A DNA stretch of 64,000 bases from Circinella umbellata (Eukaryota > Mucoromycota > Mucoromycetes > Mucorales > Lichtheimiaceae), in contig JAIWNF010000111.1 of the NCBI GenBank assembly GCA_025093555.1, positions 1 through 64,000 of the forward strand, in the 5' to 3' direction. The position numbers and the translations under genes are program-made. The notes below the pieces were generated by a model. That model did no database searches. It had not been told where the DNA came from and saw only the letters and a program-made list of their open reading frames with translations. Each line of letters opens with the position of its first letter. The stretch's first letter is position 1. Shown here piece by piece: positions 11,973 to 54,910 of the stretch.

Positions 11973-13064
11973 TGGGTAGTTGGTTTTTTGGTAGTAACTT
12001 TACGTGCTGTTATTTGAGTGTATGATGGGGTAGATGATTTTGTAGTTGTTGCTGCTGATGGTGAGGAATTATATTTATTGTGATTATCATTATTGATATT
12101 ATTATTAGTGTTGCTGCTATCTGTATCTGAAGCATATTTTGAGGCTTGAGAGCCAGTGGAGGGGTTAATTTTTTCAGTGCTACATAAAGTGGCAAGTTCA
12201 CGCTCTAGTTATTTATTTTTTTTGTTATAAGCTATTAATAGCATCTGTAAGTTCACTTACCTTTTTTTGTAATTTTACAAGCTCCTCAAACATTGCATCA
12301 TGTTTATCCAATCTTTTATGGATAGCTTGAAGATAGTCAGGTAGTTGGGGAAAATTATGGATAAAGGAATCCATACCATCAGATTGGGATTTGGGGGCTG
12401 CTGCTTGGTGTTTTTTAATAATTGTTGTGATGTGCACAATTATTTCTAAAAATTGTGGGTGGGAAAAATGTCCACTACAATTATTGCAGTGTAACATGGG
12501 AGCAGGGGGATTAAAGGCAGCATTAGTATCAGAAGTAATAGTAATGTCGCCTATTTGTTTGCATGTGATACAGCTAATTTGCGGCTGTGCAAGTGTAAAG
12601 TTTTTTTTAAACTCTTAGCAAAAATCATCAGAGAGTTGTTGTTTTTCTATAGTTTTATTTTTTTCTTGTTGTTTTTCTTTTTCGTTTTTTTCATTTTCAT
12701 TTTTTTCGGCACAAGTATTGTAGGGGCTGCTAGTAGTAGTAGTGGTGCGTTTTTTTCTTGGTTCAACTCCCATACTGGTAGGTGCATTGTCGGATGGCTG
12801 TTGTGTGGTGCGTATTTTTTTATATGTTGGGATTTTTGAATGTCGAGTTGGAATCAGCAATTGACGAATCCGTTTACTGCTAGGCGATGTTAGGATCAGG
12901 AGAGCAAGCACAAATGGTCGATGAGGTTGGTGTTTGTTTTGTTGCTTTGTGATGAGTGTGGACGATTTTATCGTGGATATAGAATTTTTATGGGTTTTTT
13001 TGATAGGGGGAGGTGTTTTTTGTGTGTGTGCGTTTATCATGGGTTCTGTATTTTTTTCACTCAA
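11973..13064 (-). pseudogene. LINE copy A ORF1 (N-terminal two thirds)
   Basis: The frame starts SEKNTEPMINAHTQKTPPP at a TTG (13062-13064) and has in order a Ser/Pro/Thr-rich basic region, a Lys/Glu-rich helix, a zinc ribbon, a PQLPDYLQAIHKRLDKHD segment, a coiled coil (KKVSELTDAINSL) and an SYTQITARK motif. It carries a frame break near 12610, with further frame changes around 12225, and is cut at 11972 by the chromodomain transposon. ORF1 proteins of L1-type elements bind the element RNA. No ORF2 survives for this copy. Confidence 0.8.
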
Positions 13065-13370
13065 TTTGGTAATTTTAAAAGAAAAGTGAGGAATAGAGGG
13101 AAGAGAAGCATGCCATGATAGTATAGTTGAAATGATTGTTTTTATTAAGAGGGACTATAGAGCCGCGTCAAGAACTTGACATAATGCTCGCCCAGACAAA
13201 AGACTAATTAGTGTTACAGTAATTGCATAAAACCTCTGTGCGCAAGAATTAAGGTAAAAAAAGTAATGTGGGGTAAAGCAGAGTGGAAGCAAGTGATAGA
13301 AAAATTATGCACTGATAGTTTGAAACTAAATAAGGGGGGAGATAAGATAATAATTTTTTTTTTTGCTACA
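13065..13370 (-). other. LINE copy A 5'UTR, joined to the poly(A) tail of copy B
   Basis: A leader of about 290 bp is shared with 35709-35997, 43256-43545, 48918-49195 and 54559-54842. It contains the conserved GCATGCC and CTTGACATAATGCTCG blocks (given on the plus strand). It ends in a T run at about 13352-13363, which is the poly(A) tail of copy B. Confidence 0.8.
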
Positions 13371-13401
13371 AATATATAGACTAACAAGGAAAAAGAAAAA
13401 G

Positions 13402-18566: not shown

Positions 18567-18568
18567 AT

Positions 18569-19919
18569 TTAATTTTGGTTAGTAGTAGGGGGATCGTTAG
18601 TTGTTGTTATACCCATATCTTCATCCATCTCAACAGATTCAGGGGGTTGTGTTGGACTATGGGGACGGAATGCATTAGCAGCAGCTAAAGCAACGTCATC
18701 ATCATGTTTTTTTGGGGATACACAAGATTGAAAATCGTTTTCTGATATCCATGCTTTTTGTAAAAAGTTGCGAGCTATTGCTATTTTGATATGGGGGGTT
18801 TTAATAAAGTTAATAGCCCGAGTACATGTGTTGTTGAATATAATTTTAGCTTGTTCTGTTCGTTCATCAGTCGACTTATCCTTATATTCAGGATCGCGAA
18901 CAATATCAGGATGATATGGATCAAATGAATCGTAAAGTTTTACTCCTCTACGGTTAAGTTGAGCAGCAAATTCTGTTTCAAAGTCATTGTGGATCAAGAT
19001 ACCTACTACTCCTCTGTCTGGAAAGTGTACATCCAAAACACGAGAATTATCTACTTTTAATTTACGTAGGGTATCACGAAGTTGTTTGATTGACATACGG
19101 TGGTGTTGATACAAGTAGACAAATTTAAATCCACTGGGTGCAGATGGTGCCAGTTTCCGTGCAGCAGCTTTAACTTGGCGTGTGCTTGGTTTTTTGATGT
19201 TTCCTTTACGGGCAGTAATTTGCGCATAAGATGGAGTTGATGGTGTTGCATCGTTTTGTGTTGGTGGTGGTGGTGTATTATTATTTTTAGGAGTATCCAT
19301 TTTTTTACCTGTATCAGAGGCATATTTTGATGCTTCAGAACCTGTGGATGGGGTATTTTTTTCGGTGCTACGTAATACAGCAAGTTCACGTTCTAGTTGT
19401 TCATTTTTTTGTTGGAGGTGTTTATTAGCATCAGTGAGTTCTGTTACCTTTTCACGTAATTTAATGAGATCGGCAAATAATTCGTCATGCTTATCCAATC
19501 TTTTGTGAATGGCTTGTAGATAGTCAGGTAATTGAGGGAAATTATGAATAAAAGTATCCATCATATTATCTGGTTGGGGTTCAGCTGTAGCTTGATGATT
19601 TTTAATAATTGTTGCGATGTGCACAATTATTTCCAAAAATTGTGGGTGGGAAAAATGTGCACCACAATGATTGCAGTGTAACATGGGAGCAGGGGGGTTA
19701 AAGGCAGCATTAGTATCAGTAGCAATAATAATGTTACCTATTTGTTTGCATGTGGTACAGCTAATTTGCGGCTGTGCAAGTTTAAAGTTTTCTTCAAATT
19801 CTTGGCAAAAATTATCAGGGAGTTGGTGTTTTTCAATAGTTTTATTTTTTTCTTGTTGTTTTTCTTTTTCGTTTTTTTCGTTTTCATTTTTTTCGGCACG
19901 AGTGTTGTAAGGGCTACTA
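18569..19919 (-). pseudogene. LINE copy B ORF1, C-terminal part
   Basis: From the junction with the giant transposon the frame reads SSPYNTRAEKNENE, a zinc ribbon (CTTCKQIG and LHCNHCGAHF), IHNFPQLPDYLQAIHKRLDK, a coiled coil (EKVTELTDANKHLQQKNEQL), a Pro/Thr linker with SYAQITARKG, then an RRM-like domain (FKFVYLYQHHRM, VLDVHFPDRGVVGILIHNDF) and an acidic tail ending at the TAA at 18569-18571. The first 300 bp of ORF1 lie beyond the giant insertion at 35375-35708. An open frame extends into the transposon end, adding repeat-derived residues that are not native. Confidence 0.9.
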
Positions 19920-19945
19920 CAGGATTTTTCAGAAGAAGTTGACCA

Positions 19946-20215
19946 TGGTGTTTTTGATTTCAAGGATGATGTTTTTGATTCCACGGATGATGTTTTTGAT
20001 TCCGAGGATGGTGTTTTTGATTTCAAGGATGACGTTTTTTAAATCATGGATGTTATTTTTGAATTCAAGGATGGTGTTTTTGATTTCAAGGATGACGTTT
20101 TTTGAATCATGGATGCTATTTTTGAATTCAAGGATGGTGTTTTTGATTTCAAGGATGAAGTTTTTTAAATCATGGATGCTCATTTTGAATTCATGGATGG
20201 CGTTTTATTAATCAT
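19946..20215 (+). repeat. 21-bp minisatellite next to the left transposon end
   Basis: About 12 imperfect copies of a 21-bp unit of the form GGATGnTGTTTTTGATTTCAA. Its translation gives a 7-residue repeat on either strand, which explains the open frames here. The mirror copy is at 35079-35348. Its position directly inside the end suggests transposase-binding subterminal repeats. Confidence 0.85.
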
Positions 20216-20404
20216 GGATGGTGTTTTTTTATTTCGAGGTAAAGGTTTTTTATATTCAAGGATAATATTTTTTTTTTTCATGGGTAATATTTTTATATTC
20301 AAGTTCAAGGTTAAATAATTCGAGTTCGACGTTTTTATTTTCGCGGATCGTATGTTTTTATTCGCATTCTGCGTCATCAATTTCCGCACTAAACTTTTTT
20401 TATT

Positions 20405-20705
20405 TCATGTTTGGTAATGGAATATTCGCTCTCAGCCTTTTTTATTTCATATTTGGTAATGGAATATTCGCTCTCAGCCTTTTTTATTTCATGTTTGGTA
20501 GTGGAATAATCGCACTAAACTTTTTTTATTTCATGTATGGCAGTGGAATGTTCGCTCTCAGCCTTTTTTATTTCATGGTTGGTAGTGGAATATTCGCACT
20601 AAACTTTTTTTATTTCATGTACGGCAGTGGAATGTTCGCTCTCAGCCTTTTTTATTTCATGGTTGGTAGTGGAATATTCGCACTAAACTTTTTTTATTTC
20701 ATGTT
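20405..20705 (+). repeat. 42-bp minisatellite with a GAATATTC palindrome
   Basis: About seven 42-bp units contain GTGGAATATTCGC followed by either TCTCAGCC or ACTAAAC and TTTTTTATTTCATG. The two spacer types mostly alternate. Several units carry the 8-bp palindrome GAATATTC, others a one-base variant. The mirror copy is at 34589-34889. The open frames across it are translations of the repeat. Confidence 0.85.
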
Positions 20706-21951
20706 TGGTTACTAAATATTCACTGATGCGATATTTAATTATCATCACTTATAATATTTTTATTTTTATATATCATCTTCATTATATATAGTCTCTACAA
20801 CATATAGCAATGACCCATATAAAAAAAATAATCATTATTGAGCAGTAAAATAATCGTGCATAACTGAAAGGGGTTATTTAGCCACAGCAAAAAAAAAATA
20901 CAAATGGGTCGGTTTTTTTTTTCTTTTCCCACCTTATTCTTTCCTTTTTTGATAAAAAAACACAAACATTTATTTCAATCTAACAATTGTAGAAACTATA
21001 ATAAGATCTGAATTATATGTCTTTCTTTTGTGAGATATGTTTATCTAGTGAAAGAGGAAAAAAAACGGTAGGACCAAATAGAGTTAAGTAGTATAAGGTT
21101 GGAGGAAACAAAACGGTAATTGTGCTCAAGAAACATGAATATATTCAACATGGAAGAAAGGGACACTGACAATATAAGAAAAGGAAAGCATTCTATTCAA
21201 AATGATTTATGTGCCTGAAGGAACGGAAACGTCATGGTTAGAACAAAAAAAAGTATACAAAAAGATATAAAACTAACAGTTGCTAAAACTTTCAAGACAC
21301 GCGTTGCTTTAGTAATCTATATAACGAGCATCTCAACCAACAATGTAGTCGACAATCGTACATCAATATTGAACACAATGAACGTCAATCTATACTATCC
21401 TAAAAACAGTGTTACAAAAAAAAGAACCAAAGAACAAGCAAACAACAATATAATATTATACTTGTTTTCCAACTCACCAAACAAAGCTATTTTTAAAAGT
21501 TAAAAAGAAGACGTTACTTTTGCAGCAAGCTATAATATGTTTTCTACGCCAAATATTATTAATGGAACAGCACACGCTATCAAAGAAACACATGGATGAT
21601 GAAAAGACAGAGAGTGAGTAAGATATTACAACTATGAATTGGATTCCAAGTAGTGTTGTTGTTATGGCTGGCATATTATTATTATTATTATCATTAATAA
21701 AGTATATACATAAATTCTTTTGGATAATCAACTCTATCTTATTGGACGTTCTCGAGTATGTTGTTATCGATACCAGGATGGTTTCCATCCCTCATAATCA
21801 TTATTGGAAATAAATATGTAATAAAACGAGCTAAAGGTTGAAACGAGAATATTTAAGAGAGTGATTGGGTTACACACGAAGCATTTTTTCTTTCTTTTCT
21901 TCTCACTACTTTAAAAGCTATCCAATCTACAAAAACCGTCCTCCAGAAACT

Positions 21952-22371
21952 TCCAATGAAGCAAGTAGTAATGATTTACCCTTTGATATTATTCGTCTGC
22001 ACTTCTTGCTTACTCATTAATTGACACTAACATGAATCAACACATATATAGCCATCGCCAATCCTGAAGAAGCATTGGTAATTGAGCTTGAAGAAATAAA
22101 ACGGAATGCTATCCGTGTGCTGACTTTGCGAACAGCTTGTTAGGCTGCGAAACAGCAGTATAGAAATGAGTTGAGGGACGGATGGATGTTAATTAACATC
22201 GCCTCTGAAGATCCCGCTGGATATCTTTGTGTTGGGCGACGCTATGCTTCACAAAAACGACGACAGCGTGCCCTTGACGTATTTAGTAAGGGTTTGGAGT
22301 CTGTACGTATGTGTCAGTCTGATTACCATTGTCTCCTCCAAGGTAAAATGCACGCTCAGCAATCTCTTTAA
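21952..22371 (+). pseudogene. F-box/TPR-like gene fragment in the giant transposon
   Basis: The plus strand reads NDLPFDIIR, an F-box-like opening, then an intron-like gap, then PEEALVIELEEIKRNAIRVL, an in-frame TAG near 22140, and DPAGYLCVGRRYASQKRRQR with ALDVFSKGL, a TPR-like helix pair. This layout resembles the F-box plus TPR proteins common in Mucoromycota. No full-length frame exists, so it is a broken host-type gene fragment. The homology is recognised by pattern only, and the start is uncertain. Confidence 0.45.
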
Positions 22372-22831
22372 CGTTGAGCGCGTTTCGAAAGTTGCAAGTA
22401 AATAAAGAAAAAGTTTGGTTTAGGCGTACATAAAAAAAGCATTCACCTAATATATACATATATTTCCTTCTTCCTTTATTTTCCCCATAAAATATATCTC
22501 TCAAGAAGATAAAATAAAAAGCAATTTGGATCGGATGATGTTTAAATTTTTTCTCCTTAACAAAATAAAAAAAAAGAGATGGAAACCTGTAGGATATGTA
22601 TACAGTTGCAACCATAAAATATAATTAGTAGTAAATCAAACTGGATAGAGGTATATAAGAATGGCTGATGTATATGATTGGAAAATGTGAGTAGTTGTAA
22701 AATACAGCTTTACTTGTTCTTAGTTACTTTGTGATAACAAATCAATCAAAAAAAATATAGAGTTTATAGAAAGGGAGAGTGGAATTCGGTTTTATTAAAG
22801 GGTTGCGAAGTAGATGATTATATTAGGATAT
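22372..22831. other. AT-rich spacer, no gene seen
   Basis: No coding chain, repeat or element end was recognised between the F-box/TPR fragment and the end of the decayed transposase gene. Confidence 0.55.
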
Positions 22832-24252
22832 TTATTCGGAAATGATTGGAAAGGCGAGGTCAATATATGAAGCACATTTAGGAGGATCAATTTTCTCCAT
22901 AGCAGACTCTAACCGTTGAATGATAGTCTCGTTTTTTCTTTGGTCTAGTAAAGAACGAGAACAGACACGTTGCACCTCTCGGAAAATTTTTTCCGCAGGG
23001 TTCCAAGAGCCATCATGGTGGGGAAGAAAAAAAACTTTGTGGCCCCAATATTCTATTTCTTTCTTCACCTGCTCCACTTCTTCCGCCGGCCCACTATCCA
23101 AGCCAAAGAAAAAGTTTTCCCTGCTCTGATCACTGAGCTTGGTCATCACTCTCTTGACAAAGGCTGTCATGTCTTAAGCTGAAGTTGGACCTTCAAGAGA
23201 GCGAATCCCCTGCTCGACAATCCCAGCGGTGCCAAATGCAACCAACATACTCAGATCTGCAACCTCGTCGTGATCTTCCTCCTTGCGTGCCTTTTTTGGT
23301 CTTGTTTCTGGGTATGTACGGCGCAAGTTGTAAACGTACGATGCTTCGCCAATAAAAATGCAATTTTCACGTACATTGACTTCACCGGCGTTCAACGTTT
23401 GCCAATACTTATGCGTGTATTCTTCTTCTTCTTCTTCCGAAGGCATGGATGGGTAGCTCGGAACCCGTTGAAAAGTAATTCGAGCATTTTTACGTAACCA
23501 ATTTTGCAGAGATGACACTGCAGGTATGGCCATAGTTCCATCATCCACAAAAGCAAAATAAATGTCCTCGACGGACATGTTTGGATTCTCATCCACCTTA
23601 TTCAGAATAAAAGAAACAGTTTCTTCTGTGAAACTGCTCTTTGCTTTACGGCCTCTGGTGCTGGGGGTTGCCTTACCACGAGCCTTGTAACGTCGAAGAG
23701 CGTCACGCAATGTACCGGCCTTGATTCCGGTTCTTCCTGCTGCCTTTTCAACACTCATGCCATAAATTTTGACACTTTCGACAGCAAGCGCCATCTTGGC
23801 ATCTGAATACTTTTCGTATTTCCCATTGGCACGCTGCGTCGTGGGTTTCTTGACACGGCTACCATTGGGTCTCTTTGGAAGTTTACCAAACGACTTGTTG
23901 GTAACTTGCTGGCTGGTGATACCAGATTGCTCGACAACATCGGCATTATCCGTCGATGCTGCTTCCTCGTCACGGACCTCTGTCATTTTGGTATCTTTTG
24001 TTATATATTGGTTAGTAAAAAGAACCACGATATGTTTGGCTAATACCTTATCAACCATCTGTTCGTTTTCCTTTCATAGGTTTACGTTTTGATGATTTGA
24101 GTAGATATATTTTATATATGTCATTTAACTCGTTTATGCATACCTTCACCCTGGAAACTCATTGTTCGTTGGAACATGGTACTTAAAACCACCGATGCTT
24201 CGAGTTCTGATTCGGTGCGGTTGTTGTTGGTGTTGGCTTGGTTAGTGTTCAT
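22832..24252 (-). pseudogene. Tc1/mariner-type transposase homologue with a lost catalytic Asp
   Basis: A possible start ATG lies at 24250-24252, followed by one or two small introns (one with a perfect TACTAAC branch site near 24015); phases around these joints do not close cleanly, and the main frame can start at the ATG inside CAAAATGACAG near 23985. The body has a basic N-terminus, a helix-turn-helix (MALAVESVKIYGMSVEKAAG, GIKAGTLRDALRRYKARG) and a transposase core. The first catalytic position reads CIFIGEASYVYN, where relatives have Asp. The second block reads FFGLDSGPAEEVEQVK and the third NPAEKIFREVQ, with DD34E spacing. An in-frame TAA at 23171-23173 splits it. It parallels the gene at 25513-27262 throughout and could be a decayed duplicate or a repurposed non-catalytic protein. 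Confidence 0.75.
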
Positions 24253-25512
24253 TGCTAAAGTAAGTTTATATTTATAACTTTTGTTAGTTCTACTCTAAAA
24301 ATCATATTTATATATTTATAACTTTTTCCCTTATGTGAGAATAAAAGCTTTGCACATACTGTGTAAATATTTACGATTAAAAGTCTTTTGAAAAGAATAA
24401 GGAGGGAGGACAAAACAAAAAGTGTATCGAAGTGTTTTATATGTGTGTGGAGCTCTTAATGAATCATTCCGGATCAGAATAGTATCATTTTAAACCTAAT
24501 ATGTTTTAAACGAAAACATTGACATATATGTTCAATTGAAGAGACTTTGTTGGAACTTAAAAAAATGAGATATACTCACTTGTACACCGGTCAATGATGT
24601 TAGATAATGTTAAAAAGAACAATATACAATTAATAATGTTAACTTTGATATTAAAAAAAGCAACAATCATTAATCATAACGTAATACCAAAAAAAAAGAA
24701 CACGTTCATAAATATTTGAAATTACTATCATGAGATTTTATTTTATTTCTCAACTATATATCTATTTCCACTTCTTATGCAACTATTCCTCTTCTTCTTT
24801 TGCAAATCAAGATTATACGATGGGAATGACTAGGAACTGTTATATACATAACAGCTGTGAAACTCTTAAAGTAATAATTCAACCTATAAAACAATGATTA
24901 CCCATTATATCCATCCATAATATGCATGTATCAATATACTTCTTTTTTTAAAGCGGGTTGATTGATGTGTAAAATTTCAACCTTCAAAAAAGAAACTATA
25001 AAGTTATTCTAGATATAACTAAATAATACGATGATCAACAAGATTGCAACATAGCACAATACATAACCATGCTTGTAAGATTGAAAGACAAATATTACGA
25101 AGACAAAGGATGGAATAGTTTTCAAACAACAGCCGGAAAACAGTTTAACGATTAAATTCATACACGATCTCAACTAACTGATTTGGATATTACAGATTCC
25201 CGAACGAGTACAATCAAAAGTAAATGGAAGTAGTTATATTAAAGTATTGTTAATTAACACGCGTTGGAATCTAGAAAGAAAAGGAAACACTTGTCATAGA
25301 GAAGTTGAAGTTTTAAATGAAGGATGCAATAGTATAAAAAAGAGAAATATAAGTCCCCAGTTTTACTACAGCTGACTTTTTTGTCATACTTCTTTTTTCT
25401 GTCTTCCCCCCTTTTGTAATTTTTTAAGCCGAAAAATATATTTATAAAGTGATAAAATAGAATAGAATAAAGTAGAAAAGAGGGATAATAGTTATGTAGT
25501 GGGAGGAAGAAT
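24253..25512. other. AT-rich spacer between the two transposase genes
   Basis: No gene or repeat was recognised. It probably includes the promoter of the gene ending at 22832 and the 3' region of the gene ending at 25513. Confidence 0.55.
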
Positions 25513-27262
25513 TTAAAGATCATCTTCATGTGCAATACACCGAGGAAAGAAACTTATGGAGTGGGAAACCCATCCTTTATAATCACTGGGAGTTACCTTG
25601 GCAATTGCCGCGGAAATTAGATCCTCCAGTTGTTTTTGTTGTTTTTCGGTTTCTGTTCCTTCTTGGTTACCATCTTCCGTATCGTCTTCTGTATCGATTA
25701 ACGCATTTTTATACAATATCTTGATCTTGGAAAAAAATTCTTCAATAGGATTAAGGAACGGAGAATACCGTGGCAGCATTATGATATGATGGCCTCGTTT
25801 CTCTACCTCATCTTTAATCCACCGTGCTACATGAATTGGTGCATTATCAATAACCAAGTAGCACCCTGTGCGGCCTTGCTCCTCGAGACGATCCATAACC
25901 AAGTGCAAAAATGCAAGAAAGTCATGACTATTGGTCCCTTTTGTTTTTTTCATTTCTTGTTCACCATTTTTTTCTTCATCTTCTTTTTCCTTAGTTGTTT
26001 GAGACTTTTTTTACCTTTGCCCTTCTTTTTTTATCTGTTTTTGGAGGGATTCTCAGAGACGCTTCCACCAGCCCATCGTTACAAACAGCAGCCAAAAGAG
26101 TGATAGTTGGCGAACGTCTAGTCTTCACCTTGATACGCACTGGTCTTCCGCGTTCAGACCATCCATAATTACGGCGCATACTGGCGTTAAACGGACATTC
26201 ATCGATAAAAATACAATTACTTTCGTAATCAATTTGCCTACTATGTATATACTGCCGCACCCACTCTTCTCTCATTCTTTTTGTATCGGTATCTGTACGA
26301 CGTTCGGGATACCATCCTGCTCGCTTCAATGATAGACGACATTTCTGCGTCAGATGTCGATGAAGGGTAGATTGTGAGATGGTCACATTGAATTTTTTTT
26401 CAAATGATTCTTGAATTTGTTGCAATGTGGCCGTGTTATGTTTCTTGATAAACATTTCAATATGTTCAGCACCTTGGCTGTCAATTTTCCCTTGCGTGGT
26501 TCTTGTTTTGGATTTTGGAAAAGCATTTCCAGTGGACTTGTGTTCGTTTATGATCTTTGTAACATTAGACCGACTGATTCCCATAGATCGAGCGGCTGCA
26601 TCATGCGTCATGCCATAAACTCGTACGCTGTTCAATATTGTCTGGATCTGTTTTTCAGTCAAATTTTTACCGTATGATTTACGGCTTTTCTTGCTAGGAC
26701 GATTAACAAGAGGTGTAACTTGTTCTACAGTGGCAATAGAGGATAGTGTACCAATATTTGATAAGATTGATCGCATTACAGGAAGATTTGCCACTTGCGG
26801 ATCCGTCTCGTTTTCGCTTTCATCATGGCTATCACAATCAGCGTTCCGGTATACATAGCGGGACTCTGGGAGTATACCGTCGTTCAGTCGCTCATCCTCA
26901 CTCATAGGATTTACATCGCCATCTAATATAAAGATATGGTTATATAAATAAATATTATTTTCATAGAAGGTCTCTTACCATCTTCGACTTCCGAGCTATT
27001 TGATGCGACCGTATCTTGGTCCATTAGCATTTCCTGATCACAATTGATACCTATTTATTACCAAAGTCAGTACTTTACGTATATGTATCTTATCAAAGTG
27101 CTACTGACCAGATTGCTTATTTTGCTTAGCAGTCAAACTAATCGAGCTAAAAGCTTTAGCTAATGTGGATGATCTCGTTGTCTGAGAGCGAGTTTTTGGG
27201 ACGTATGTCCGTTTTGTTACTCTGCCGGCATTGCGAGTTTTTAAGGAAGTAGTGTTGGTCAT
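25513..27262 (-). CDS. Tc1/mariner-type transposase (DD34E), three exons, one frame change
   Basis: ATG at 27260-27262. Exon 1 is 27109-27262 (MTNTTSLKTRNAGRVTKRTY), exon 2 is 26980-27050 and exon 3 runs from 26922 down; both joints are in phase with consensus sites. Two helix-turn-helix motifs are visible: TILNSVRVYGMTHDAAARSM with GISRSNVTKI, and ATLQQIQESFEKKFNVTISQ with STLHRHL. The catalytic residues are CIFIDECPFN (Asp 1), YLVIDNAPIHVARW (Asp 2) and FLNPIEEFFSKIK (Glu), with 34 residues between the last two as in Tc1. At about 25985-26000 the frame shifts by one in a run of A, in a Lys-rich linker between Asp 1 and Asp 2; otherwise it is open. This is the best candidate for the enzyme that moves the giant transposon. 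The frame change could be real, a sequencing error or a slippage site. Confidence 0.82.
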
Positions 27263-27328
27263 TGATGTTAGAAAATAAGTAAAGTTGTAAACAAGAAGAG
27301 AAAAATAGTAATAATGATAAAGCTTTAT

Positions 27329-27836
27329 TTATTTTTTTAATAACTTTTCTACTGGTACTACTGGAGTACCAAATATTTTGATACATGAAAAAGCAATTGT
27401 TTTGTATTTCGTATTTTTTAAAGGCGGTTTGACTACCAATGTTGGTGAGCAGATGCTTGATGAGGATGTATCAAGATCATTTTGAAACATTGAATGCTTT
27501 TGCATCGAGATCTTGATAGCTTTATCTTGTGCTTTAATATTATGAAATGTGTTAATATCCCTGTCTTTTCTTTTGTTTTCTTTTGTTTTTGTCTTCTTTT
27601 AAAAAGAATAGTTTCTTACTTTGAGTTTCTTCTAAACTCAAATCTTTTAATCTTCTTGCGAGGTCGCGGTCCTCCTGCTGACCATGAGTTTCCTGTAACA
27701 ATTGAACTGAGCCAACCAAAGACTTAAGTCGACTAGAAGCAGCTCTTAGTTCTGCAGCAGTAGGACCAGCCTTCTTCAAGCTTTTTCTTGGGATGACTTG
27801 TCTTTTTCTTTCTGCTGCTTTTTTTGTTTTCGCCAT
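27329..27836 (-). CDS. Small spliced gene of unknown function in the giant transposon
   Basis: Exon 1 (27620-27836) and exon 2 (27329-27531) join in phase and give a 139-residue basic protein with no stop. It starts MAKTKKAAERKRQVIPRKSL, continues with an amphipathic helical stretch (AAELRAASSRLKSLVGSVQL), and ends VPVEKLLKK. The donor is GTAAGA, the acceptor AAAG. Its stop lies 66 bp before the transposase start on the same strand. I recognise no family. The Lys/Arg-rich N-terminus suggests nucleic-acid binding or nuclear localisation, which is only an inference. The intact splice structure in a decayed neighbourhood argues for recent function. Confidence 0.65.
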
Positions 27837-29270
27837 TATTGGTAAGAGAGTTGTATGAAAGGTTTGCGCACAAATCAAGATAATTATCACTAGTTATGGC
27901 GTAACTATATTTGAACGAGAAAAAAACAAATCCCATCATAGCAATTTGGATTCAGTACCACTTCACTTTTTTTTCCATATTCTTTCAGTTGTTTTTGGCG
28001 TTCCTCTTTGATCAATCATAGTTTATTTGGGTGTACTAAAGTTTCACATGCGAGTATCAATTTTTCAGAAGTTGATCCAAGAATAGATTACCCAAAAACA
28101 AATGATCATCTCGTTTCAACCGTTTGCCCTTTTTTATTACATAGTTTCCAACAGTGATTATGAAAAATCAAAACCATCACTCTATAAACCCCATCCATAA
28201 TAAACTTCATTAAAATATCCAGCAGCATAGGTTCGATTATTCAAAAGCATTCCAGTGTATAAATCAATTTCTAACTTCCGTATTTTATTGATTATATTGA
28301 TAGATAACAACCATGTTTCCATACTAGCCACAACAACACTCGAAAGTCCATCTTTTCAATCAGTTTATAGTTGTAATACCTGATCCACTCTTTGTCCTTT
28401 TGTCATCCATATGTTTGTTTGATAATAAGTGCTGTAAAATTGATAATATCAGGCCTAGATGACATATTATAATAATCGTATCTATATAGTAATTATGCGC
28501 CAGTTTAATCATATATATCATTATCAATTGAACACAACCGCTTCCAGTTAAGGCATAACTATACCTTTAATTGCTCAGAACTAAAATAAAAAGTGGCAAG
28601 ATCAAGTAATAATTATATAAAAAAAGAATATCAAAGTCAAGTACCGATAACTATAAATAAATTGCCTCAAAAGATAATGTATAAGTAGGTTATATAAAGA
28701 AAAAGTTCAATCTTAATATACTGTACTGAAGAATAAGATTTAATATAAGAAAAAGAAAATAAATTAATTGAATAGAATTGAAGAATGTAACTTACTTTAC
28801 TAATAAATCATATTGCTTAAGATATAATATTAATTGTCTATCAATAAATGTAACAATAGAGGACAATCGTTTATTGAAAGGAAAAAAAAAGGGGAGAGTG
28901 GCAAAGTAAAATAATAAGGTTTCTTTCGTAAGATTTCCTGGGGCATGGGAATTAGTTGCTTTTCCAAAAAAGAATAAATTAGACTTCGGAAGCCCCGATG
29001 AAAAAAAAACATATTCTCTTTTTTCTTCTTTATTATTGTCCTACTTTTACTTTTTCTCATCTTGAAAGACATCATTAAATTTATCAATATAATTCATCAA
29101 TAAATGTATTCAAGAGTCAATAAGAACTGTTCCCTTCGAGCCATCAGTTTCCATTGGTTTCATTGGCTTGGATAGTAAGTTTTGAAATTCTCGTTTTTAT
29201 TGCTGAATACTTTTACAAACTATTCGCCTCATAACGGTTAACAAAGACATTAACTACAGTTCTCCTTGAC
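27837..29270. other. Spacer with a diverged copy of part of the terminal repeat
   Basis: No gene was recognised. From about 28300 to 28475 the sequence is a diverged match to the inner right arm (33535-33780): blocks such as ACAACAACACT, TAGTTGTAATA, TCATCCAT and GTGCTG recur in the same order. The remainder is AT-rich without features. Confidence 0.4.
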
Positions 29271-29279
29271 AGTTTTTTT

Positions 29280-29948
29280 TTTACCTTTTTCCATCTAGAA
29301 ATCATATGCATTATATTTGGTTTCTTGCCTCCAGAAGCTATCGCTGAATCTGCTCTGGTCTCAAAGCTGTGGGCACAACAGCTTTTTCGTTGCGACAGCT
29401 GCTGGTCAAAAATCATAGTTACCGAGTTATCGGGTGGAGATTTTCTTCACCCTTGCCAACAACTAACACATATCATTCACCATGTACATCATCTCACTCT
29501 TCCATACGGTAGTCATTATCTTCAACTTTTCCTCAACCGTATGGCTCACACTCACTCCGACACTCATTTTAAATCCATCACCTTCGCTTCTTATTATACT
29601 TCACCTAAATCCCAAAGTAAGTAAAACAAAATTCTGTCATATATAATCGTTCTTTTTTGTGCATAATAAAATATGCGTTATCGAAATATGGATAGCTTCT
29701 TACTGATGCATTGAATATAATAATATGTTTACTAACAAGTTTCTCCGTTTGCTTTTTTTTATTTCTATATTATATCAACAACACTACACACAGCCCGCAT
29801 TTCCCCACAAATCATCAAAACCAGATTAGCCCGCATCGGTTCCAAAATTACTATCGACTCCATTCATTTCATCAAGCAAGAAGCAACATCCATTCGCTCC
29901 ACACCAAAGCACTACCCATTGGTGGTGGGCGGATGGAATATTGATTGA
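29280..29948 (+). CDS. F-box-like/LRR-like gene fragment, two exons
   Basis: An open stretch from about 29280 reads FLPPEAIAESALVSKLWAQQ, then CWSKIIV, resembling an F-box helix set, followed by a Leu/His-rich part (HIIHHVHHLTLPYGSHYLQL) reminiscent of the LRR region of fungal F-box proteins. A GTAAGT donor after 29616 and a CAG acceptor before 29794 join in phase to a second exon ending PLVVGGWNID and TGA at 29946-29948. The 5' end is not fixed: no in-frame ATG opens the F-box part, so earlier exons are missing or the gene is truncated. It is probably a captured host-type gene; the assignment is by pattern only. Confidence 0.45.
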
Positions 29949-31570
29949 ATATAATAGATACAAAAATAAAGATAAAAACCATATTAAAATTGAATATAAG
30001 TACGAATGAATTTGGGCAAAGGGATGAAGATACATGGGATAGTTTTAGTTACTTAAATGATATATACCAGGAAAACTAGAAATAACTGAGAAAAGATGAG
30101 GATAAAAAAGAAACATATAAATGTATATATGTATATATTACTTAACTAAACATAGAGAACAAAAAGACATTACGGAAATAGTTTCTTGGATGGAAAATAT
30201 GTATTTTGAAACTTCATATCATTGAATGATACATTCCTTTATTTATCCCGATTAATGAAGCTTCTGTTTACTTATTCTATTTTGTTCTTTTATATATTTG
30301 TCTTTTTGTCAAATACAATCAATAGTACTTGAACACTATATGCGTTTTTTTTTTTATATTTTTATTGCTTATACATCTTCTATTTAATAATACGTATTAA
30401 TAATAATAATAATAATAATAATACAAAATTGATTATTATTGCTCACTATATTACTAACCATCTTTATTGATACTTTGTTTATACCAACATTTTGTTTATA
30501 ATAACTTTTGTTACACATCAGATTATCTAATGTGAGATTGTTTTCATTCAACAAAATACAACCATGCTTTTGCACTACCTGATTTTGCCCCACTAAAATA
30601 TTTAATAAAAGTCAAAAGTAATAAAGAAATATTGTAATCCTACGAGACTAGAAATAATCGATTGATCCTTTACTTTTTCAAAAAAAATATGTACTGTTTA
30701 TGTCCACCAAAACCGCATCGAGCGATCATTGATTACTGCACTTTTGTCAAAAATATACCTTTATTTTGAAATGACAAAAATAGTGGTGCTAAGAAAGGAA
30801 AGATTTTGACGATAATAATAGCAAATAACCAAAATTGTATACCATAACAAAGACAGTGAATAAGAATAAAAAAAATCTATACAACATGATAGTAAAATTA
30901 TAGTAATACGTAGTCTACGTATAATAAATAATATTCTGCTAGATTACACTTTTCGTTTTATGTATAGAATACTATTCACATGGCTTTTCGGTATGAAGAT
31001 AATAATACATGGCCATTTTATTATAAATTGACACACTATACAATATAACGAGTGACTTACCGGGTATTATATAAGATGGAAAGGTAACGGAACATGTAAA
31101 ATATTGTTCGAGCTCATGTACTCTCGTCGATTTGGCGTAAATCCAAACAATAATACGGAAACTCACGCGGACGTTTACAAAACACGTATCCGACTTGTTT
31201 GTTTTGCACTTTAAATTTAGCCAAACGATCTATTTACATCGGCCCGGGTTAGATTCACTATATATATGATCTCATATTGAAAACATTTTTCTATTTTTTC
31301 CAGTAGTACAATATGACAGAAATGGTCCACATTCACAAGTAGTGCCAGTACTACAAAACACAACAATGAACAAGAAGAGTACTTTATTTATGGCCTGAAA
31401 TAGAGCAGTATATACTTAATATAAACTTTGCTTTTGATGAACAAGATATTTTAATTCAAACAATTTTTTATTACTCTAATAAACTCGGATTGCCATTTTT
31501 GACGTTCCATGCATCTGCTGTTATACTTACCTCAGAATAAATACAATACTTTGAGCACATCAACACACAC
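29949..31570. other. AT-rich spacer, no gene recognised
   Basis: Small open frames only. A TAA/ATT microsatellite lies at 30396-30424. No splice-consistent chain was found. Confidence 0.55.
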
Positions 31571-31615
31571 TTGTTTTATTTCTTTCATTTGATCTTTAGC
31601 TACTTTCTCACCAAC

Positions 31616-31969
31616 ATGTCCATTAGCAACACTACTATAAAATATAAATTTTTATATGCATTTTTCGTTGCTCCAGATCCAACTGACAAACAAATCCGAC
31701 TCCAATTCACAACAGACGAACAAGAGGAATGTTTTCTTAGCAGTTATTTTGAAGGAATGGGTGTTAGCCAAGCAGCTCGAGAAGCTCGGATATGGGCAGC
31801 TACTGGTGACATTATTCTTGACACATATTTGTCAATGAATGGAGATGGTATGTAGTAGTGTTTATATTGGCAGATATTTTTTATATGATTCTAATCACTC
31901 TTTTAAGAATGCGTGTATATGGCAGAAGGAAAAGTAATCCGAACAATTCGAGGACCACGAATTTTTTAA
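31616..31969 (+). CDS. Small spliced gene of unknown function, helix-turn-helix-like
   Basis: Exon 1 (31616-31847) begins MSISNTT and includes FTTDEQEECFLSSYFEGMGV followed by SQAAREARI, a pattern like a helix-turn-helix (EGMGVSQAAREARI). A GTATGT donor and a TTAAG acceptor with a CTAAT branch site join in phase to exon 2 (31908-31969), which ends VIRTIRGPRIF and TAA. The product is 97 residues with no stop inside. I recognise no family. It could be a DNA-binding accessory protein of the transposon or the remnant of a larger transposase N-terminus; the sequence alone does not decide. Confidence 0.55.
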
Positions 31970-32569
31970 AAACTTGTTATGTAAATAAAAGTGCTCAATT
32001 AAATCGTCCCCACCACTTTATTATCTAAATATTTTACTTCTTTACCTGTTCTTTTTCTCTTTTGTAAAAAAAAATCCTAAATGGTCAATACAATACGCAA
32101 TGTATTCTTATATCTTTATATCTTTATATTTTTATATTTACAATATAAACTACAACGTATTTCTTCTTTAATTACCATTGTTCATTGAAACACCACTTTT
32201 TTTTCTCTCTTTTAACAGGTTTCGATATAATAATTATTCCGAGGGTGTCTTTATGTACAAAAAAAAAAATCAACTACATCCATTTTATTTCATTCATTAG
32301 ACTACATTTACTCTTCCTACTTCAACTGTATTTCTGCCGCAAAAAAAAACACCTATACACACGTATCATCCACTCACTCGCATCTATATCTGTATATGAT
32401 CCATCAAGAGCATTAGGTTTGTATAAACACATTAATCTTAGATCCACGTATTCTTTTTTACTGTCCTTTATTAGCAGAGCGCTATATTCTCTCGAATAAG
32501 AATGATTAGTATACACAAGATTAAATAATACTCTAATATACACGCGCACCTCTTTTTCCCTGTTACATT
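31970..32569. other. AT-rich spacer, no gene recognised
   Basis: Short open frames on both strands overlap one another and show no known motif. Confidence 0.5.
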
Positions 32570-33270
32570 ATTATGATGTTTTTGTTTACTATCGATACTG
32601 GTATCTTATTTTATTTCTCTTCAGATAGATTATATAACTTGTGCTGATAACTATTGAAACAATAACTATTGAAAAAAAAGTGTTCTGGATATGGATTGAT
32701 GTTACGCTTCGTATACGTGGATTTGGATAATGTATATTTGGATAGTATGAAATAGAGAGATTATTGGGGTGTTAACTATGTTATACATATCATTACGGTA
32801 ATGGTAATAAATTATTATATGGATTGGTTTTTTTTTGAACAATGGTATTTGCTATTATTTATTACGGGAACGGTCAAAATATCATTATTGTTATGAAATA
32901 ATATAGGAAATGTTGTAGCATAAATAGTGCTAGGAATAATATGGTATAAAAGATATAATGAACTGGAACGAGTAATAACATTTCGGCATCTTTGGGATTA
33001 GCTCATTTGAAAAGTATAGATCTAGAAAGTTTGATGAATCTTTGAGTCGAATAGAATAATATTAAGCACCTTTATTGGCTTGCTGCCTGTAAATACATTA
33101 TGAACGCGGCATACTTTTTTATGTAATATTTTATGTTTTATAAGTAGCCTCGTTGAAAAAAAAATGCACATTACAACTTTGAATCTATTGGATCATTGGA
33201 TAGTCGGGTTGGATGAAAATATATCCATTTGCATCTAAACTTTCGGATGAGATAATAATGCTAAATCCAC
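32570..33270 (+). mobile_element. Diverged relative of the hAT-like elements
   Basis: This aligns in order with 14860-15570 and 40620-41330: blocks such as GTTTACTA, TATTGAAAAAAAAGTG, GGATATGG.TTGAT, GGATTTGGAT, GAAATAATATAGGAAATGTTG and CTTTGGGATTAG recur, and the GGATG-rich end near 33200-33260 is still visible. It has no clear TAGCGTTC terminus. It is an old copy carried inside the giant transposon. Confidence 0.65.
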
Positions 33271-33508
33271 ATCAGCAGAACCCTATATTCTGTCGGATAA
33301 AAATGAATATTACCGCAACAATATATAATACTTTAATATACGCGAGTATTTTCTTGAGATAAACTGGACAGCCTCAAATATATGGTACTACTTATAATAT
33401 TGACGAGAGAATATAGATATATATTACGAAGCATTTGTTCAGAAGGGATTGAGTATATTATTGGATGGACATATATCTAGTATACTGATCAAGGATTTTG
33501 AGCTAACA

Positions 33509-35374
33509 TGATTATGAGGGATGGAAACCATCCTGGTATCGATAACAACATACTCGAGAACGTCCAATAAGATAGAGTCGATTATCCAAAAGAATTTATG
33601 TATATACTTTATTGATGATAATAATAATAATATACAGCCATAACAACAACACTACTTGGAATCCAATTCATAGTTGTAATATCTTACTCACTCTCTGTCT
33701 TTCATCATCCATGTGTTTCTTTGATAGCGTGTGCTGTTCCATTAATAATATTTGGCGTAGAAAACATATTATAGCTTGCTGCAAAAGTAACGTCTTCTTT
33801 TTAACTTTTAAAAATAGCTTTGTTTGGTGAGTTGGAAAACAAGTATTATTGTTGTTGCTTGTTCTTTGGTTCTTTTTTTTGTAACACTGTTTTTAGGATA
33901 GTATAGATTGACGTTCATTGTGTTCAATATTGATGTACGATTGTCGACTACATTGTTGGTTGAGATGCTCGTTATATAGATTACTAAAGCAACGCGTGTC
34001 TTGAAAGTTTTAGCAACTGTTAGTTTTATATCTTTTTGTATACTTTTTTTTGTTCTAACCATGACGTTTCCGTTCCTTCAGGCACATAAATCATTTGAAT
34101 AGAATGCTTTCCTTTTCTTATATTGTCAGTGTCCCTTCTTCCATGTTGAATATATTCATGTTTCTTGAGCACAATTACCGTTTTGTTTCCTCCAACCTTA
34201 TACTACTTAACTCTATTTGGTCCTACCGTTTTTTTTCCTCTTTCACTAGATAAACATATCTCACAAAAGAAAGACATATAATTCAGATCTTATTATAGTT
34301 TCTACAATTGTTAGATTGAAATAAATGTTTGTGTTTTTTTTATCAAAAAAGGAAAGAATAAGGTGGGAAAAGAAAAAAAAACCGACCCATTTGTATTTTT
34401 TTTTTGCTGTGGCTAAATAACCCCTTTCAGTTATGCACGATTATTTTACTGCTCAATAATGATTATTTTTTTTATATGGGTCATTGCTATATGTTGTAGA
34501 GACTATATATAATGAAGATGATATATAAAAATAAAAATATTATAAGTGATGATAATTAAATATCGCATCAGTGAATATTTAGTAACCAAACATGAAATAA
34601 AAAAAGTTTAGTGCGAATATTCCACTACCAACCATGAAATAAAAAAGGCTGAGAGCGAACATTCCACTGCCATACATGAAATAAAAAAAGTTTAGTGCGA
34701 ATATTCCACTACCAACCATGAAATAAAAAAGGCTGAGAGCGAACATTCCACTGCCATACATGAAATAAAAAAAGTTTAGTGCGATTATTCCACTACCAAA
34801 CATGAAATAAAAAAGGCTGAGAGCGAATATTCCATTACCAAATATGAAATAAAAAAGGCTGAGAGCGAATATTCCATTACCAAACATGAAATAAAAAAAG
34901 TTTAGTGCGGAAATTGATGACGCAGAATGCGAATAAAAACATACGATCCGCGAAAATAAAAACGTCGAACTCGAATTATTTAACCTTGAACTTGAATATA
35001 AAAATATTACCCATGAAAAAAAAAAATATTATCCTTGAATATAAAAAACCTTTACCTCGAAACAAAAAAACACCATCCATGATTAATAAAACGCTATCCA
35101 TGAATTCAAAATGAGCATCCATGATTTAAAAAACTTCATCCTTGAAATCAAAAACACCATCCTTGAATTCAAAAATAGCATCCATGATTCAAAAAACGTC
35201 ATCCTTGAAATCAAAAACACCATCCTTGAATTCAAAAATAACATCCATGATTTAAAAAACGTCATCCTTGAAATCAAAAACACCATCCTCGGAATCAAAA
35301 ACATCATCCTTGGAATCAAAAACGTCATCCTTGAAATCAAAAACACCATGGTCAACTTCTTCTGAAAAATCCTG
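33509..35374 (-). repeat. Right terminal inverted repeat of the giant transposon
   Basis: This arm of 1866 bp is the reverse complement of 19920-21800. It includes the 42-bp minisatellite (34589-34889) and the 21-bp minisatellite (35079-35348), and ends CTGAAAAATCCTG followed by TA. Differences between arms are few single bases and a short microsatellite change, so the arms are recent or kept alike by conversion. Confidence 0.92.
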
Positions 35375-35708
35375 TATTAGTAGTAGTGGTGCGTTTTTTA
35401 GTTGGTTCAACTCCCATACTGGTAAGTGAATTGTCGGAGGGCTGTTGTGTGGCGCGTATTTTTTTATATGTTGGGATTTTAGAATGCCGAGTTGGAATTA
35501 GCGATTGACGAATCCGTTTGCTCCTAGGCGACGTTGGGACCAGGAGATCAAGCACAAACGGGCGATGGGGCTGGTGTTTATTTTGTTGCTGTGTGATGAG
35601 TGTGGACGATTTTATCGTGGATATAGATTTTTTATGGATTTTTTTTATAGAGGGGGTTGTTTTTTGTGTGTGTGCGTTTATCACGTGTTCTGTATTTTTT
35701 TCGCTCAA
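35375..35708 (-). pseudogene. LINE copy B ORF1, N-terminal part
   Basis: The frame begins SEKNTEHVINAHTQKT at 35708 (TTG codon) and runs to KKRTTTTN at the right edge of the giant transposon. It is the missing N-terminus of ORF1 at 18569-19919: the split falls in a run of Thr codons (plus strand GTAGTAGTAG). No stop occurs in it. Confidence 0.85.
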
Positions 35709-35997
35709 TTTGGTAATTTTAAAAGAAAAGTGAGGAATAGAGGGAAGAGAAGCATGCCGTGATAGTATAGTTGAAATGATTTTATTTAAAGGGACTATAG
35801 AGCTGCGTCAAGAACTTGACATAATGCTCGCCCAGACAAAAGACTAATTAGTGTCACAGTAAATGCATAAAAAACCTCTGTGCGCAAGAAATAAGGTAAA
35901 AAAGGTAATGTGGGATAAAGCGGAGTGGAAACAAGTGATAGAAAAATTATGCACCGATAGTTTGAAACTAAATAAGGGGGGAGATAAAATAATAAAA
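35709..35997 (-). other. LINE copy B 5'UTR, joined to the poly(A) of copy C
   Basis: It carries the same leader as the other copies (GCATGCCGTGATAGTATAGT and CTTGACATAATGCTCG blocks). It borders a T run at 35998-36012, the poly(A) tail of copy C. Confidence 0.8.
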
Positions 35998-36040
35998 AAT
36001 TTTTTTTTTTTTTGTATATATATAATAAATAAAAGAAAAG

Positions 36041-39000: not shown

Positions 39001-39430
39001 AGTGCTATCTTGCTTTATAAAGGTTGGTTCACCATATATGTATGTGCTATTAAGGCATTGAAAGCCATGTTCGATTAGAAAGTTATTTAAATAAAGTCCT
39101 CGGTTAGTGTCCTTTTTATCTCCCAATAATTGTTTGTTGCGTGTATTGATGTCACCACAAATGATGGTACCATTTTGATTATTATTAGTTGTTAGCGGTA
39201 GTTGTGACATGATGTCTATGGCGTCTATGTCGGAAAGGGTGCCATGACCAGGAGGGGGAAGATATAAGCAGTGGATTAAAAATCCAGCTACTTGACATGA
39301 TAAGATATAAGGAGAAGAATTAGGGAGAAGGGTGACAGGATAGGGACAGTTAGGATGAACAAGTAATGATATTCCCATCGACCCGCGAAAGGAATTATCT
39401 ACTTTTTTACCATATGTGTGATGTTGTGTC
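36041..39430 (-). pseudogene. LINE copy C ORF2, main part
   Basis: From the hAT-like element it reads the endonuclease (GDINTRN, LDSDHRPVS), the reverse transcriptase with FRPISLTSVLRKV, LDIASAYDTVDR and ALLYADNVILIASP (YADN rather than YADD), and the C-terminal knuckle CSNCSTTRTSRHHLIDC. The Asp-to-Asn change in the catalytic pair would inactivate polymerisation. A short deletion near 36410 (GCGGTTGAGA of the sisters is absent) shifts the frame; the tail continues to LVTLASG with the stop at 36041. Confidence 0.9.
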
Positions 39431-41542: not shown

Positions 41543-41548
41543 TTTTTT

Positions 41549-52872: not shown

Positions 52873-54558
52873 TTAATTTTGGTTAGTAGTAAGGGAATCG
52901 TTAGTTGTTGTTATACCCATATCTTCATCCATCTCAACAGATTCAGGGGGTGGTGTTGGACTATGGGGGCGGAATGCATTAGCGGCAGCTAAAGCATTGT
53001 CATCATCATTTTTTTGTGGGGATACACAAGATTGAAAATCTTTTTCTGATATCCATTCTTTTTGTAAAAAGTTGCGAGCTATTGCTATTTTAATACGGGG
53101 GGTTTTAATAAAGTTAATAGCATGGGTACATGTGTTGCTGAAAATAATTTTAGCTTGTTCTTTGCGTTCATCTGGTGACTTATCCTTATATTCAGGATCG
53201 CGAACAATATCAGGATGGTAGGGATCGAAGGAATCAAAAAGTTTTACTCCTCTACGGTTAAGTTGGGCAGCAAATTCTGCTTCAAAGTCATTGTGGATCA
53301 AAATACCTACTACTCCTCTGTCTGGAAAATGGACATCCAAAACACGAGAATTATCTACTTTTAATTTGCGTAGGGTATCACGAAGTTGTTTCATTGTCAT
53401 ACGATGGTGTTGATACAGGTAGACAAATTTAAATCCACCTGGTGTAGATGGTGCCAGTTTGCGTGCAGCAGCTTTCACTTGGCGTGTGCTTGGTTTTTTT
53501 TAAACTTCCTTTACGGGCAGTAATTTGCGCATAAGATGGAGTTGATTGTGTTGAATCGTTTTGTGTTGGTGGTGGTGGTGTATTATTATTTGTATGTGTA
53601 TCCATTTTTTTACCTGTATCCGAAGAGGCGTATTTTGATGCTTGGGAGCCAGTTGAGAGGTTAATTGTTTCTGTGCCACGTAAAGTGGCAAGTTCGTGTT
53701 CTTGTTTTTTATTTTGGTGTTGTAAGCTATTATTAGCATCTGTGAGTTCACTTACCTGTTTTTGTAATTTGACAAGTTCTTTAAACATTTCATCATGTTT
53801 ATCCAATCTTTTATGGATAGCTTGCAAGTAGTCAGGCAGTTGAGGAAAATTATGGATAAAAGTATCCATCATATTATCTGATTAGGGTTCAGCTGCAGCT
53901 TGGTGGTTTTTAATGATTGTTGCGATGTGCACAATTATTTCTAAAAATTGTGGGTGGGAAAAATGTCCACCACAATGATTGCAGTGTAACATGGGAGCAG
54001 GGGGATTAAAGGCAGCATTAGTATCAGAAGCAAGAATAATGTTACCTATTTGTTTGCATGTGGTACAGCTAATTTGCGGCTATGCAAGTTTAAAGTTTTC
54101 TTCAAATTCTTGGCAAAAATTATCAGGTAGTTGTTGTTTTTCAATGGTTTTATTTTTTTCTTGTTGTTTTTCTTTTTCGTTTTTTTCATTTTCGTTTTTT
54201 TCGGCACGAGTGTTGTAAGGGCTACTAGTAGTAGTAGTGGTGCGTTTTTTTGTTGGTTCAACTCCCATACTGATAAGGGAATTGTCGGATGGCGGCTGGG
54301 TGGCGCGTATTTTTTTATACGTTGGGATCTTTGAATGCCGATTTGGAATCAGCGATTGACGAATCCGTTTACTGCTAGGCGATGTTGGGATCAGGAGATC
54401 AAGCACAAACGGGTGAGGAGGTTGGTGTTTGTTTTGTTGCTTTGTGATGAGTGTGGACGATTTTATCGTGGATATAGATTTTTTATAGGTTTTTTTGATA
54501 GGGGGGGTGTTTTTTGTGTGTGTGCGTTTATCACGTGTTCTGTATTTTTTTCGCTCAA
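52873..54558 (-). pseudogene. LINE copy E ORF1
   Basis: ORF1 layout as in the other copies, from the SEKNTEHVINAHT frame at 54558 to the stop at 52873. Damage: TAG at 54080-54082 (CAG in copy B), TAA at 53882-53884 (CAA in copy B), and a frame change in a T run near 53500. The coiled-coil part resembles copies C and D while the linker and RRM-like part resemble copy B. ORF1 is therefore dead although ORF2 is complete. Confidence 0.87.
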
Positions 54559-54910
54559 TTTGGTAATTTTAAAAGAAAAGTTAGGAATAGAGGGAAGAGA
54601 AGCATGCCGTGATAGTATAGTTGAAATGATTTTATTTAAAGGGACTATAGAGCCGCGTCAAGAACTTGACATAATGCTCGCCCAGACAAAAGACTAATTA
54701 GTGTCACAGTAAATGCATAAAAAACCTCTGTGCGCAAGAAATAAGGTAAAAAAGGTAATGTGGGGTAAAGCGGAGTGGAAACAAGTGATAGAAAAATTAT
54801 GCACTGATAGTTTGAAACTAAATAAGGGGGGAGATAAAATAATGAAATTTTTTTTTTTTTTTTTTTTGTGCTATGTTTTTTTTGTTTTTTTTGTTTTTTT
54901 TTTTTCTATA
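54559..54910 (-). other. LINE copy E 5'UTR and poly(A) tail of copy F
   Basis: The conserved leader to about 54842 is followed by T runs at 54845-54905, the tail of copy F. Confidence 0.8.

What the first reader, a model, noticed from the sequence alone, without database searches (positions are those of the whole stretch)
19920..35374. A 15.5-kb Tc1/mariner-like transposon with 1.9-kb inverted ends and cargo
Both junctions split one LINE ORF1 cleanly, with TA on each side and CAG-starting inverted ends, the signature of Tc1/mariner transposition. The arms are about 1.87 kb with minisatellites, and the interior carries two transposase genes plus spliced small genes and F-box-like fragments. 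Known Tc1/mariner elements are usually far smaller with short ends. I know of no described fungal Tc1/mariner unit of this architecture.
Basis: partly seen in the sequence, partly recalled or inferred. Interest (0 to 1): 0.88.

Follow-up and report, generated by a model that had tools for sequence, protein, structure and literature searches.

The report
Giant two-transposase fungal mariner-type transposon
A 15.5-kilobase jumping gene in a bread-mould relative belongs to the usually tiny mariner type, yet it has kilobase-long mirror-image ends, passenger genes, and a second transposase-like protein that has lost a residue needed for cutting DNA but seems to have been kept by evolution.

Summary
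The element is real. Window 19920-35374 (15,455 bp) has 1.88-kb inverted arms, 98.7% identical, with TA on each side. Two uninterrupted LINE copies in the window show the empty site. The genome (Circinella umbellata, inferred) holds 32 matching ends, 0 for the reversed control, and four fully read copies of 12.1-15.8 kb, all TA-flanked, but only the window copy joins both arms to this interior. Two compact relatives (5.0, 5.6 kb) carry the same gene core and CAGGAT ends.

The core: T2, a DD34E Tc1/mariner transposase; T1, a paralogue without the first catalytic Asp in 10 of 10 aligned rows, under purifying selection; and small protein S, near T2 in 5 of 7 hits. The window element adds F-box cargo.

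T1's role as non-cutting partner is inference. Window T1 has a stop and T2 an unexplained frame break, so this copy may be inactive; two T1 copies have no T2 in the part read. Closest precedents: ciliate Sardine/Thon. Verdict: new variant of Tc1/mariner.

The parts
19918..19919 (.). left TA of the target-site duplication
   Evidence: sequence; empty-site comparison
19920..21801 (+). left inverted arm (about 1.88 kb)
   Evidence: self-alignment 98.7% over 1,883 columns
19945..20272 (+). 21-nt tandem array (63-nt higher order) in left arm; possible protein-binding sites (inferred)
   Evidence: TRF
20396..20709 (+). 42-nt tandem array (84-nt higher order) in left arm
   Evidence: TRF
22832..24073 (-). 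T1: transposase paralogue lacking the first catalytic Asp; in-frame stop at 23174-23176; a further upstream exon starts at 24252 (as in the annotated protein P0085)
   Evidence: ORFs; Pfam DDE_3/HTH below cut-off; residues; exon 1; fold (of the C. minor relative P0084)
25513..26974 (-). T2: DD34E Tc1/mariner transposase, in two overlapping ORFs (25991-26974 with D1; 25513-26010 with D2 and E3); frame break near 26000 unresolved
   Evidence: (DDE_3 1.4e-15 and 5.5e-07)
27101..27328 (-). probable first exon of T2 (inferred from position and from the N-termini of relatives P0018 and P0014)
   Evidence: inference
27552..27893 (-). S: small basic protein upstream of T2, weakly similar to the S gene of the compact elements, same position
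29235..29624 (+). F-box-like cargo exon
   Evidence: F-box-like 6.9e-05, just below cut-off; close copies in C66, C34, C152
31541..31855 (+). unknown cargo ORF, also in C34 (90%, one stop there)
32282..33507 (.). right subterminal region; most of it lies within both arms of C40 and C90, and it recurs in C175
33508..35374 (-). right inverted arm
35375..35376 (.). right TA of the target-site duplication
53829..54626 (.). empty-site LINE paralogue (uninterrupted)
12333..13132 (.). second empty-site LINE paralogue

Best explanation
It is a large cut-and-paste transposon of the IS630-Tc1-mariner group. T2, the paralogue with a complete DD34E triad, most likely cuts the CAGGAT ends and inserts the element at TA, which becomes duplicated (duplication shown; agent inferred). 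T1 is an old paralogue with a helix-turn-helix and an RNase-H-like fold but without the first catalytic Asp; I infer that it works as a non-cutting partner, probably binding the repeat-rich arms or holding the two ends together. S, encoded upstream of T2, is the third core gene. Compact 5-kb relatives carry this core alone; the window element adds about 5 kb of passenger DNA including an F-box-like gene between the core and the right arm. The long arms also recombine, so arms and interiors are exchanged between copies (inferred). The window copy may itself be inactive now.
Against: No activity was shown. Window T1 has a stop and T2 a frame break, which C66 has at the same place with a different shift; no splice of ordinary length joins the two parts in the window copy. 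The T2 frames of C66 and C165, not in the alignment, read E and N at the first Asp, so those copies look catalytically damaged too; C32 T1 and T2 are broken. C52 and C164 have T1 but lose similarity to the window just before T2, so 2 of the 4 window-type T1 loci lack T2 in the part read. C40, C90 and C175 have the same ends but CACTA-like interiors, so the mobilizing enzyme of these ends is inferred. C175 is not a simple insertion. dN/dS between W15 and C52 is 0.52. T1 branches are long, so the T1 clade could be inflated by long-branch attraction. The T1 model is of modest quality (mean pLDDT 64.6). Window S resembles compact S only weakly (38 and 13 of 2000 shuffles as good). C85 has TG, not TA, at its left end.
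Confidence: 0.75

Rival explanations
1. The ends belong to a CACTA-type (CMC) transposon; the tnp2-like genes in C40/C90/C175 are the true transposase and the mariner-type genes in the window element are cargo.
For: Transposase_21 matches in C40 and C175 and a Transpos_assoc match in C90, all below cut-off; these three copies have well-preserved ends.
Against: Compact C32 and C85 contain T1, T2, S and CAGGAT ends with no CACTA gene noticed by eye among their listed ORFs (120 aa or more in C85; 130 aa or more in C32; no Pfam scan of these). The CACTA-like interiors of C40 and C175 share no blastn match of 250 bp or more although their arms are 80-96% alike; only short protein-level matches remain, so they do not travel as one gene with these ends.
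Confidence: 0.1
2. T1 is simply a decaying duplicate of T2 with no function.
For: Stops in T1 of C15, C52 and C164, 3 of 4 window-type loci; dN/dS 0.52 between W15 and C52; third catalytic residue also changed in the C85-type T1.
Against: Older comparisons give dN/dS 0.185-0.354; the first Asp is missing in both deep T1 lineages, in Circinella and Phascolomyces, while most of these frames stay long.
Confidence: 0.2
3. T1 is a dominant-negative regulator that damps transposition by joining T2 multimers or competing for the ends.
For: T1 keeps HTH and RNase-H-like regions but lacks a catalytic residue; such inhibitors are known for other transposons (recalled, e.g. P-element repressors).
Against: No direct evidence; an inhibitor need not be maintained in every lineage.
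Confidence: 0.25
4. Two independent insertions or an assembly artefact created the apparent unit.
For: Draft assembly of 210 contigs; C175 flanks are not contiguous in paralogues; both arms with this interior seen once only.
Against: Four complete pairs with TA on both sides, empty sites, interior shared with C66 over 7.7 kb.
Confidence: 0.03

Closest known systems
Sardine and Thon, ciliate Tc1/mariner elements of Paramecium (PMC3464196, passages read); Tec of Euplotes (named there)
   Same: IS630-Tc1-type transposase, long terminal inverted repeats (425 and about 700 bp), several ORFs; Sardine about 6.7 kb
   Different: They pair the transposase with a tyrosine recombinase; no second, catalytically incomplete Tc1-type paralogue is described in the passages read. 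Here the large elements are 12-15.8 kb with arms up to about 2.75 kb, in a fungus
Tc1-OP1 and Tc1-MP1 of fungi (PMC9977792, passages read)
   Same: Fungal Tc1 transposons; Tc1-MP1 relatives occur in Circinella minor; DD34E for Tc1-MP1
   Different: 5,659 and 1,688 bp with one protein each; the abstract calls Tc1-OP1 the largest IS630/Tc1/mariner transposon reported to date, though Sardine above is longer. The window element is 15,455 bp with three core genes and cargo
Starships (search listings only)
   Same: Large fungal mobile elements with cargo genes
   Different: The listing centres their classification on a tyrosine recombinase and places them in Pezizomycotina; here DDE transposases, TA duplication and long inverted arms
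Foldback/Galileo-type elements (recalled)
   Same: Kilobase arms with internal tandem repeats and exchange between arms
   Different: P-superfamily type with longer target duplications (recalled)

Membership tests
IS630-Tc1-mariner | Insertion at TA with TA duplication | tested here: met
   Empty sites; TA on both sides in 4 of 4 complete copies, plus the C20 pair and C32. Against: C85 left flank reads TG
IS630-Tc1-mariner | RNase-H-fold transposase with DD34E/D triad and N-terminal HTH | tested here: met
   T2: DDE_3, triad, spacing counted; HTH_32 5.9e-06, below its cut-off. In the window the triad is spread over two frames
IS630-Tc1-mariner | Terminal inverted repeats | tested here: met
IS630-Tc1-mariner | Demonstrated transposition by the encoded enzyme | not testable with these tools
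   needs a bench assay
CACTA (CMC) | CACTA/CACTG ends (recalled) | tested here: not met
   All four complete copies begin CAGGAT
CACTA (CMC) | tnp2-type transposase inside the element | tested here: inconclusive
   Weak Transposase_21 in C40 and C175, below cut-off; not found among the 9 window-element ORFs scanned
Maverick/Polinton | 6-bp target duplication (recalled) | tested here: not met
   2-bp TA
Starship | Tyrosine recombinase captain gene | tested here: inconclusive
   None among the 9 window-element ORFs scanned; not all ORFs were scanned
Sardine/Thon/Tec-like | Tyrosine recombinase beside the DDE transposase | tested here: inconclusive
   None among the 9 element ORFs scanned; 57 ORFs of 70 aa or more overlap the interval

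The most novel reading that the evidence does not exclude
A mariner-type transposon that divides labour: a catalytically incomplete paralogue (T1) recognises and organises long, repeat-rich ends while T2 cuts, helped by a third small protein (S), letting a normally tiny transposon type carry 12-16 kb including host-like genes and exchange arms and cargo between copies. In the only three copies that bear on it, T1 type and arm type go together (W15 and C52 one type, C66 the other), although the DNA between arm and T1 is 97% identical between W15 and C66.
Probability: 0.4. Interest if true: 0.82.

Novelty: new variant of a known kind. Interest (0 to 1): 0.68.

Why it matters
Tc1/mariner elements are textbook minimal transposons: one gene, short ends, 1-2 kb (recalled). 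A lineage with a conserved three-gene core, kilobase arms and cargo shows that this type can grow like larger fungal transposons. If T1 is required, mariner transposition in this lineage needs a transposase partner without a full active site, which makes the split between end-recognition and cutting testable, and might help explain how long elements move although DNA transposition is said to drop above about 6 kb of cargo (PMC6431247, passage).

Tried and rejected
Rejected: assembly artefact; chance match of ends (0 control hits); CACTA ownership of the ends (compact elements have T1, T2, S). Tried without result: C164 as a test of T1-arm covariation (its arm is replaced by other DNA as far as its contig goes); an intron of ordinary length to explain the T2 frame break in the window (only 25- and 31-nt candidates; C66 has some up to 68 nt); genomic empty sites for C40 and C90 (none: C40 hits only its own flanks; C90's left flank recurs in C23 beside another end and its right flank at C90:810876-811043); Rfam at gathering score on the element and tRNA genes in the window (none); PADLOC on three proteins (none); C34 right arm (contig ends). 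The tool states that this genome has no relatives in the genome search. Literature on Circinella, Mucorales and Mucoromycota Tc1 elements, large fungal elements and two-transposase elements: searches; none of the titles and abstract starts listed described this architecture, but lists were capped and the library lacks most subscription journals.

Full report
WHAT WAS CHECKED. The interval starts with CAGGATTTTTCAG at 19920 and ends with its reverse complement at 35374, with TA directly outside each end. The two arms align over 1,883 columns at 98.7% and hold 21-nt and 42-nt tandem arrays. The left flank is a LINE ORF1-like frame by position (no Pfam domain above cut-off), upstream of a LINE ORF2 with endonuclease and reverse transcriptase domains at 16557-18578. 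Joined with a single TA, the flanks align through the junction to two LINE copies elsewhere in the window, 53829-54626 at 94% with one gap and 12333-13132 at 90% with six gaps, with one mismatch next to the TA. These are empty sites, so the insertion was precise and duplicated TA.

OTHER COPIES. Protein P0074 is 100% identical to the C85 T1 query over 95% of it, lies on a contig of 16,197 bases (the length of C85) and is named Circinella umbellata; I infer that the genome is this species. A 23-base end pattern gives 32 matches at up to 3 mismatches and none for the reversed pattern. Four pairs were read in full: C15 (15,455 bp), C90 (15,822), C175 (13,983) and C40 (12,053), all with TA on both sides. 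A fifth pair of ends, C20, lies 13.7 kb apart with TA on both sides; its interior was not read. Of the remaining 22 matches six were read in part (C25, C52, C66, C73, C150, C162); none of the 22 was followed to a partner end.

INTERIORS. The window interior is shared with C66 (94% over 7.7 kb), partly with C52 (95% over 5.4 kb), C164 and C34 (right part with F-box and further cargo, interrupted by two insertions of 0.8 and 1.2 kb with inverted CAGAGG-like ends). Both arms with this interior were seen only in the window. C40, C90 and C175 have related arms and CACTA-like gene pieces instead. Most of the 1.2-kb right subterminal region of the window element lies within both arms of C40 and C90 and recurs in C175, and arms and interiors have different histories: C66 has a 94% interior but a left end of only 74-80%. 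I infer recombination or gene conversion between arms. C175 supports this: its left flank continues differently in C161 and its right flank matches other loci, so that copy is rearranged.

COMPACT RELATIVES. C32 (26387-31381, 4,995 bp by my count) has 434-bp arms at 95%, ends CAGGATCTTG, TA on both sides, and lies in a retroelement-like frame that reads on through the joined flanks; its own T1 and T2 are broken. C85 (about 5.6 kb, arms about 0.7 kb, ends CAGGATTTTG) has T1 and T2 convergent; TA follows its right end but TG precedes its left end. C165 is 97% like C85 over the part read; C64 is decayed. Arm repeats in C85 have a period of 23 nt with a 69-nt higher order, against 21 and 63 nt in the window: the same plan, about two helical turns per unit. 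A small gene S lies upstream of T2 in C32, C85 and C165; S has 7 genomic hits, 5 of them on T2's strand 0.6-1.8 kb upstream of a T2 hit (C85, C165, C124, C32, C64) and 2 not near one (C137, C112). The window ORF 27552-27893 is in the same place; similarity is weak.

PAIRING. T1-like and T2-like genes lie together on six contigs (C15, C66, C85, C165, C32, C64). Against this, window-type T1 in C52 and C164 has no T2 in the part read: similarity to the window stops just before T2, at the equivalents of 25343 and 25194. Circinella minor has T1 relatives of both window-like and C66-like type (P0084; P0082 and P0083). In Phascolomyces articulosus one of three T1 relatives (566789) has the tag next to a T2 relative (566788), both with contig length 25,017; the other two had no such neighbour in the lists.

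A STRIKING PATTERN. Between window and C66 the blocks from 22501 to 30000 are 89-99% identical, except the T1 body (23001 to 24000), which is 77-84%; the arm is 74-80%, while the blocks between arm and T1 (22501-23000) are 97%. So T1 and the arm differ together. Only three copies bear on this (window and C52 against C66); C164 could not be used. It suggests, and does not show, that T1 reads the arm.

LIMITS. Window T1 carries a stop; T2 changes frame near 26000 in both window and C66, by different shifts, and no ordinary intron explains it in the window copy. The window copy may be inactive. The enzyme that moved it was not shown. Orthology of S in the window is weak.

VERDICT. A genuine multicopy family of IS630-Tc1-mariner type with a three-gene core, long repeat-rich arms and, in the large members, cargo. 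It differs from the ciliate long-armed elements (Sardine, Thon; PMC3464196, passages) by its second transposase paralogue and its size, and from described fungal Tc1 elements (PMC9977792, passages) by genes, arms and size. New variant of a known kind.

Noticed in passing
L024 981-3182 and 3198-4772 (contig C66, about 15.7-19.7 kb): The C66 copy is interrupted at the equivalent of window 30118 by DNA holding a geminivirus-Rep-like ORF (Gemini_AL1 E 0.0012, below cut-off) opposite a DDE_Tnp_4 + chromodomain ORF: possibly a transposon with a Rep gene.
   Followed up: partly
window 23001-24000 against C66: T1 gene body is 77-84% identical inside an 89-99% background, as if one gene was exchanged between element lineages.
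   Followed up: partly
L028 (C34) about 3418-4259 and 5632-6810: Two insertions of 0.8 and 1.2 kb with inverted CAGAGG-like ends at TA inside the cargo region, absent from the window copy.
   Followed up: partly
window 11980-20038, 35352-44107, 47140-58133: Five related LINE ORF1 regions on one strand in 64 kb, with short CGGATG-type tandem repeats: a LINE nest.
   Followed up: no
C40, C90, C175 interiors: CACTA-like (Transposase_21, Transpos_assoc, below cut-off) gene pieces within mariner-type arms; no blastn match of 250 bp or more between C40 and C175 there.
   Followed up: partly
L022 (C85) flanks and L042 (C64): C64 carries the C85 flanking DNA roughly contiguously, between its own T2 and S: a probable empty site blurred by A-rich tandem repeats, suggesting one family member inserted in another.
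   Followed up: partly
C52 and C164: Both T1-bearing partial copies lose similarity to the window at nearly the same place, just before T2 (equivalents of 25343 and 25194); cause unknown.
   Followed up: no
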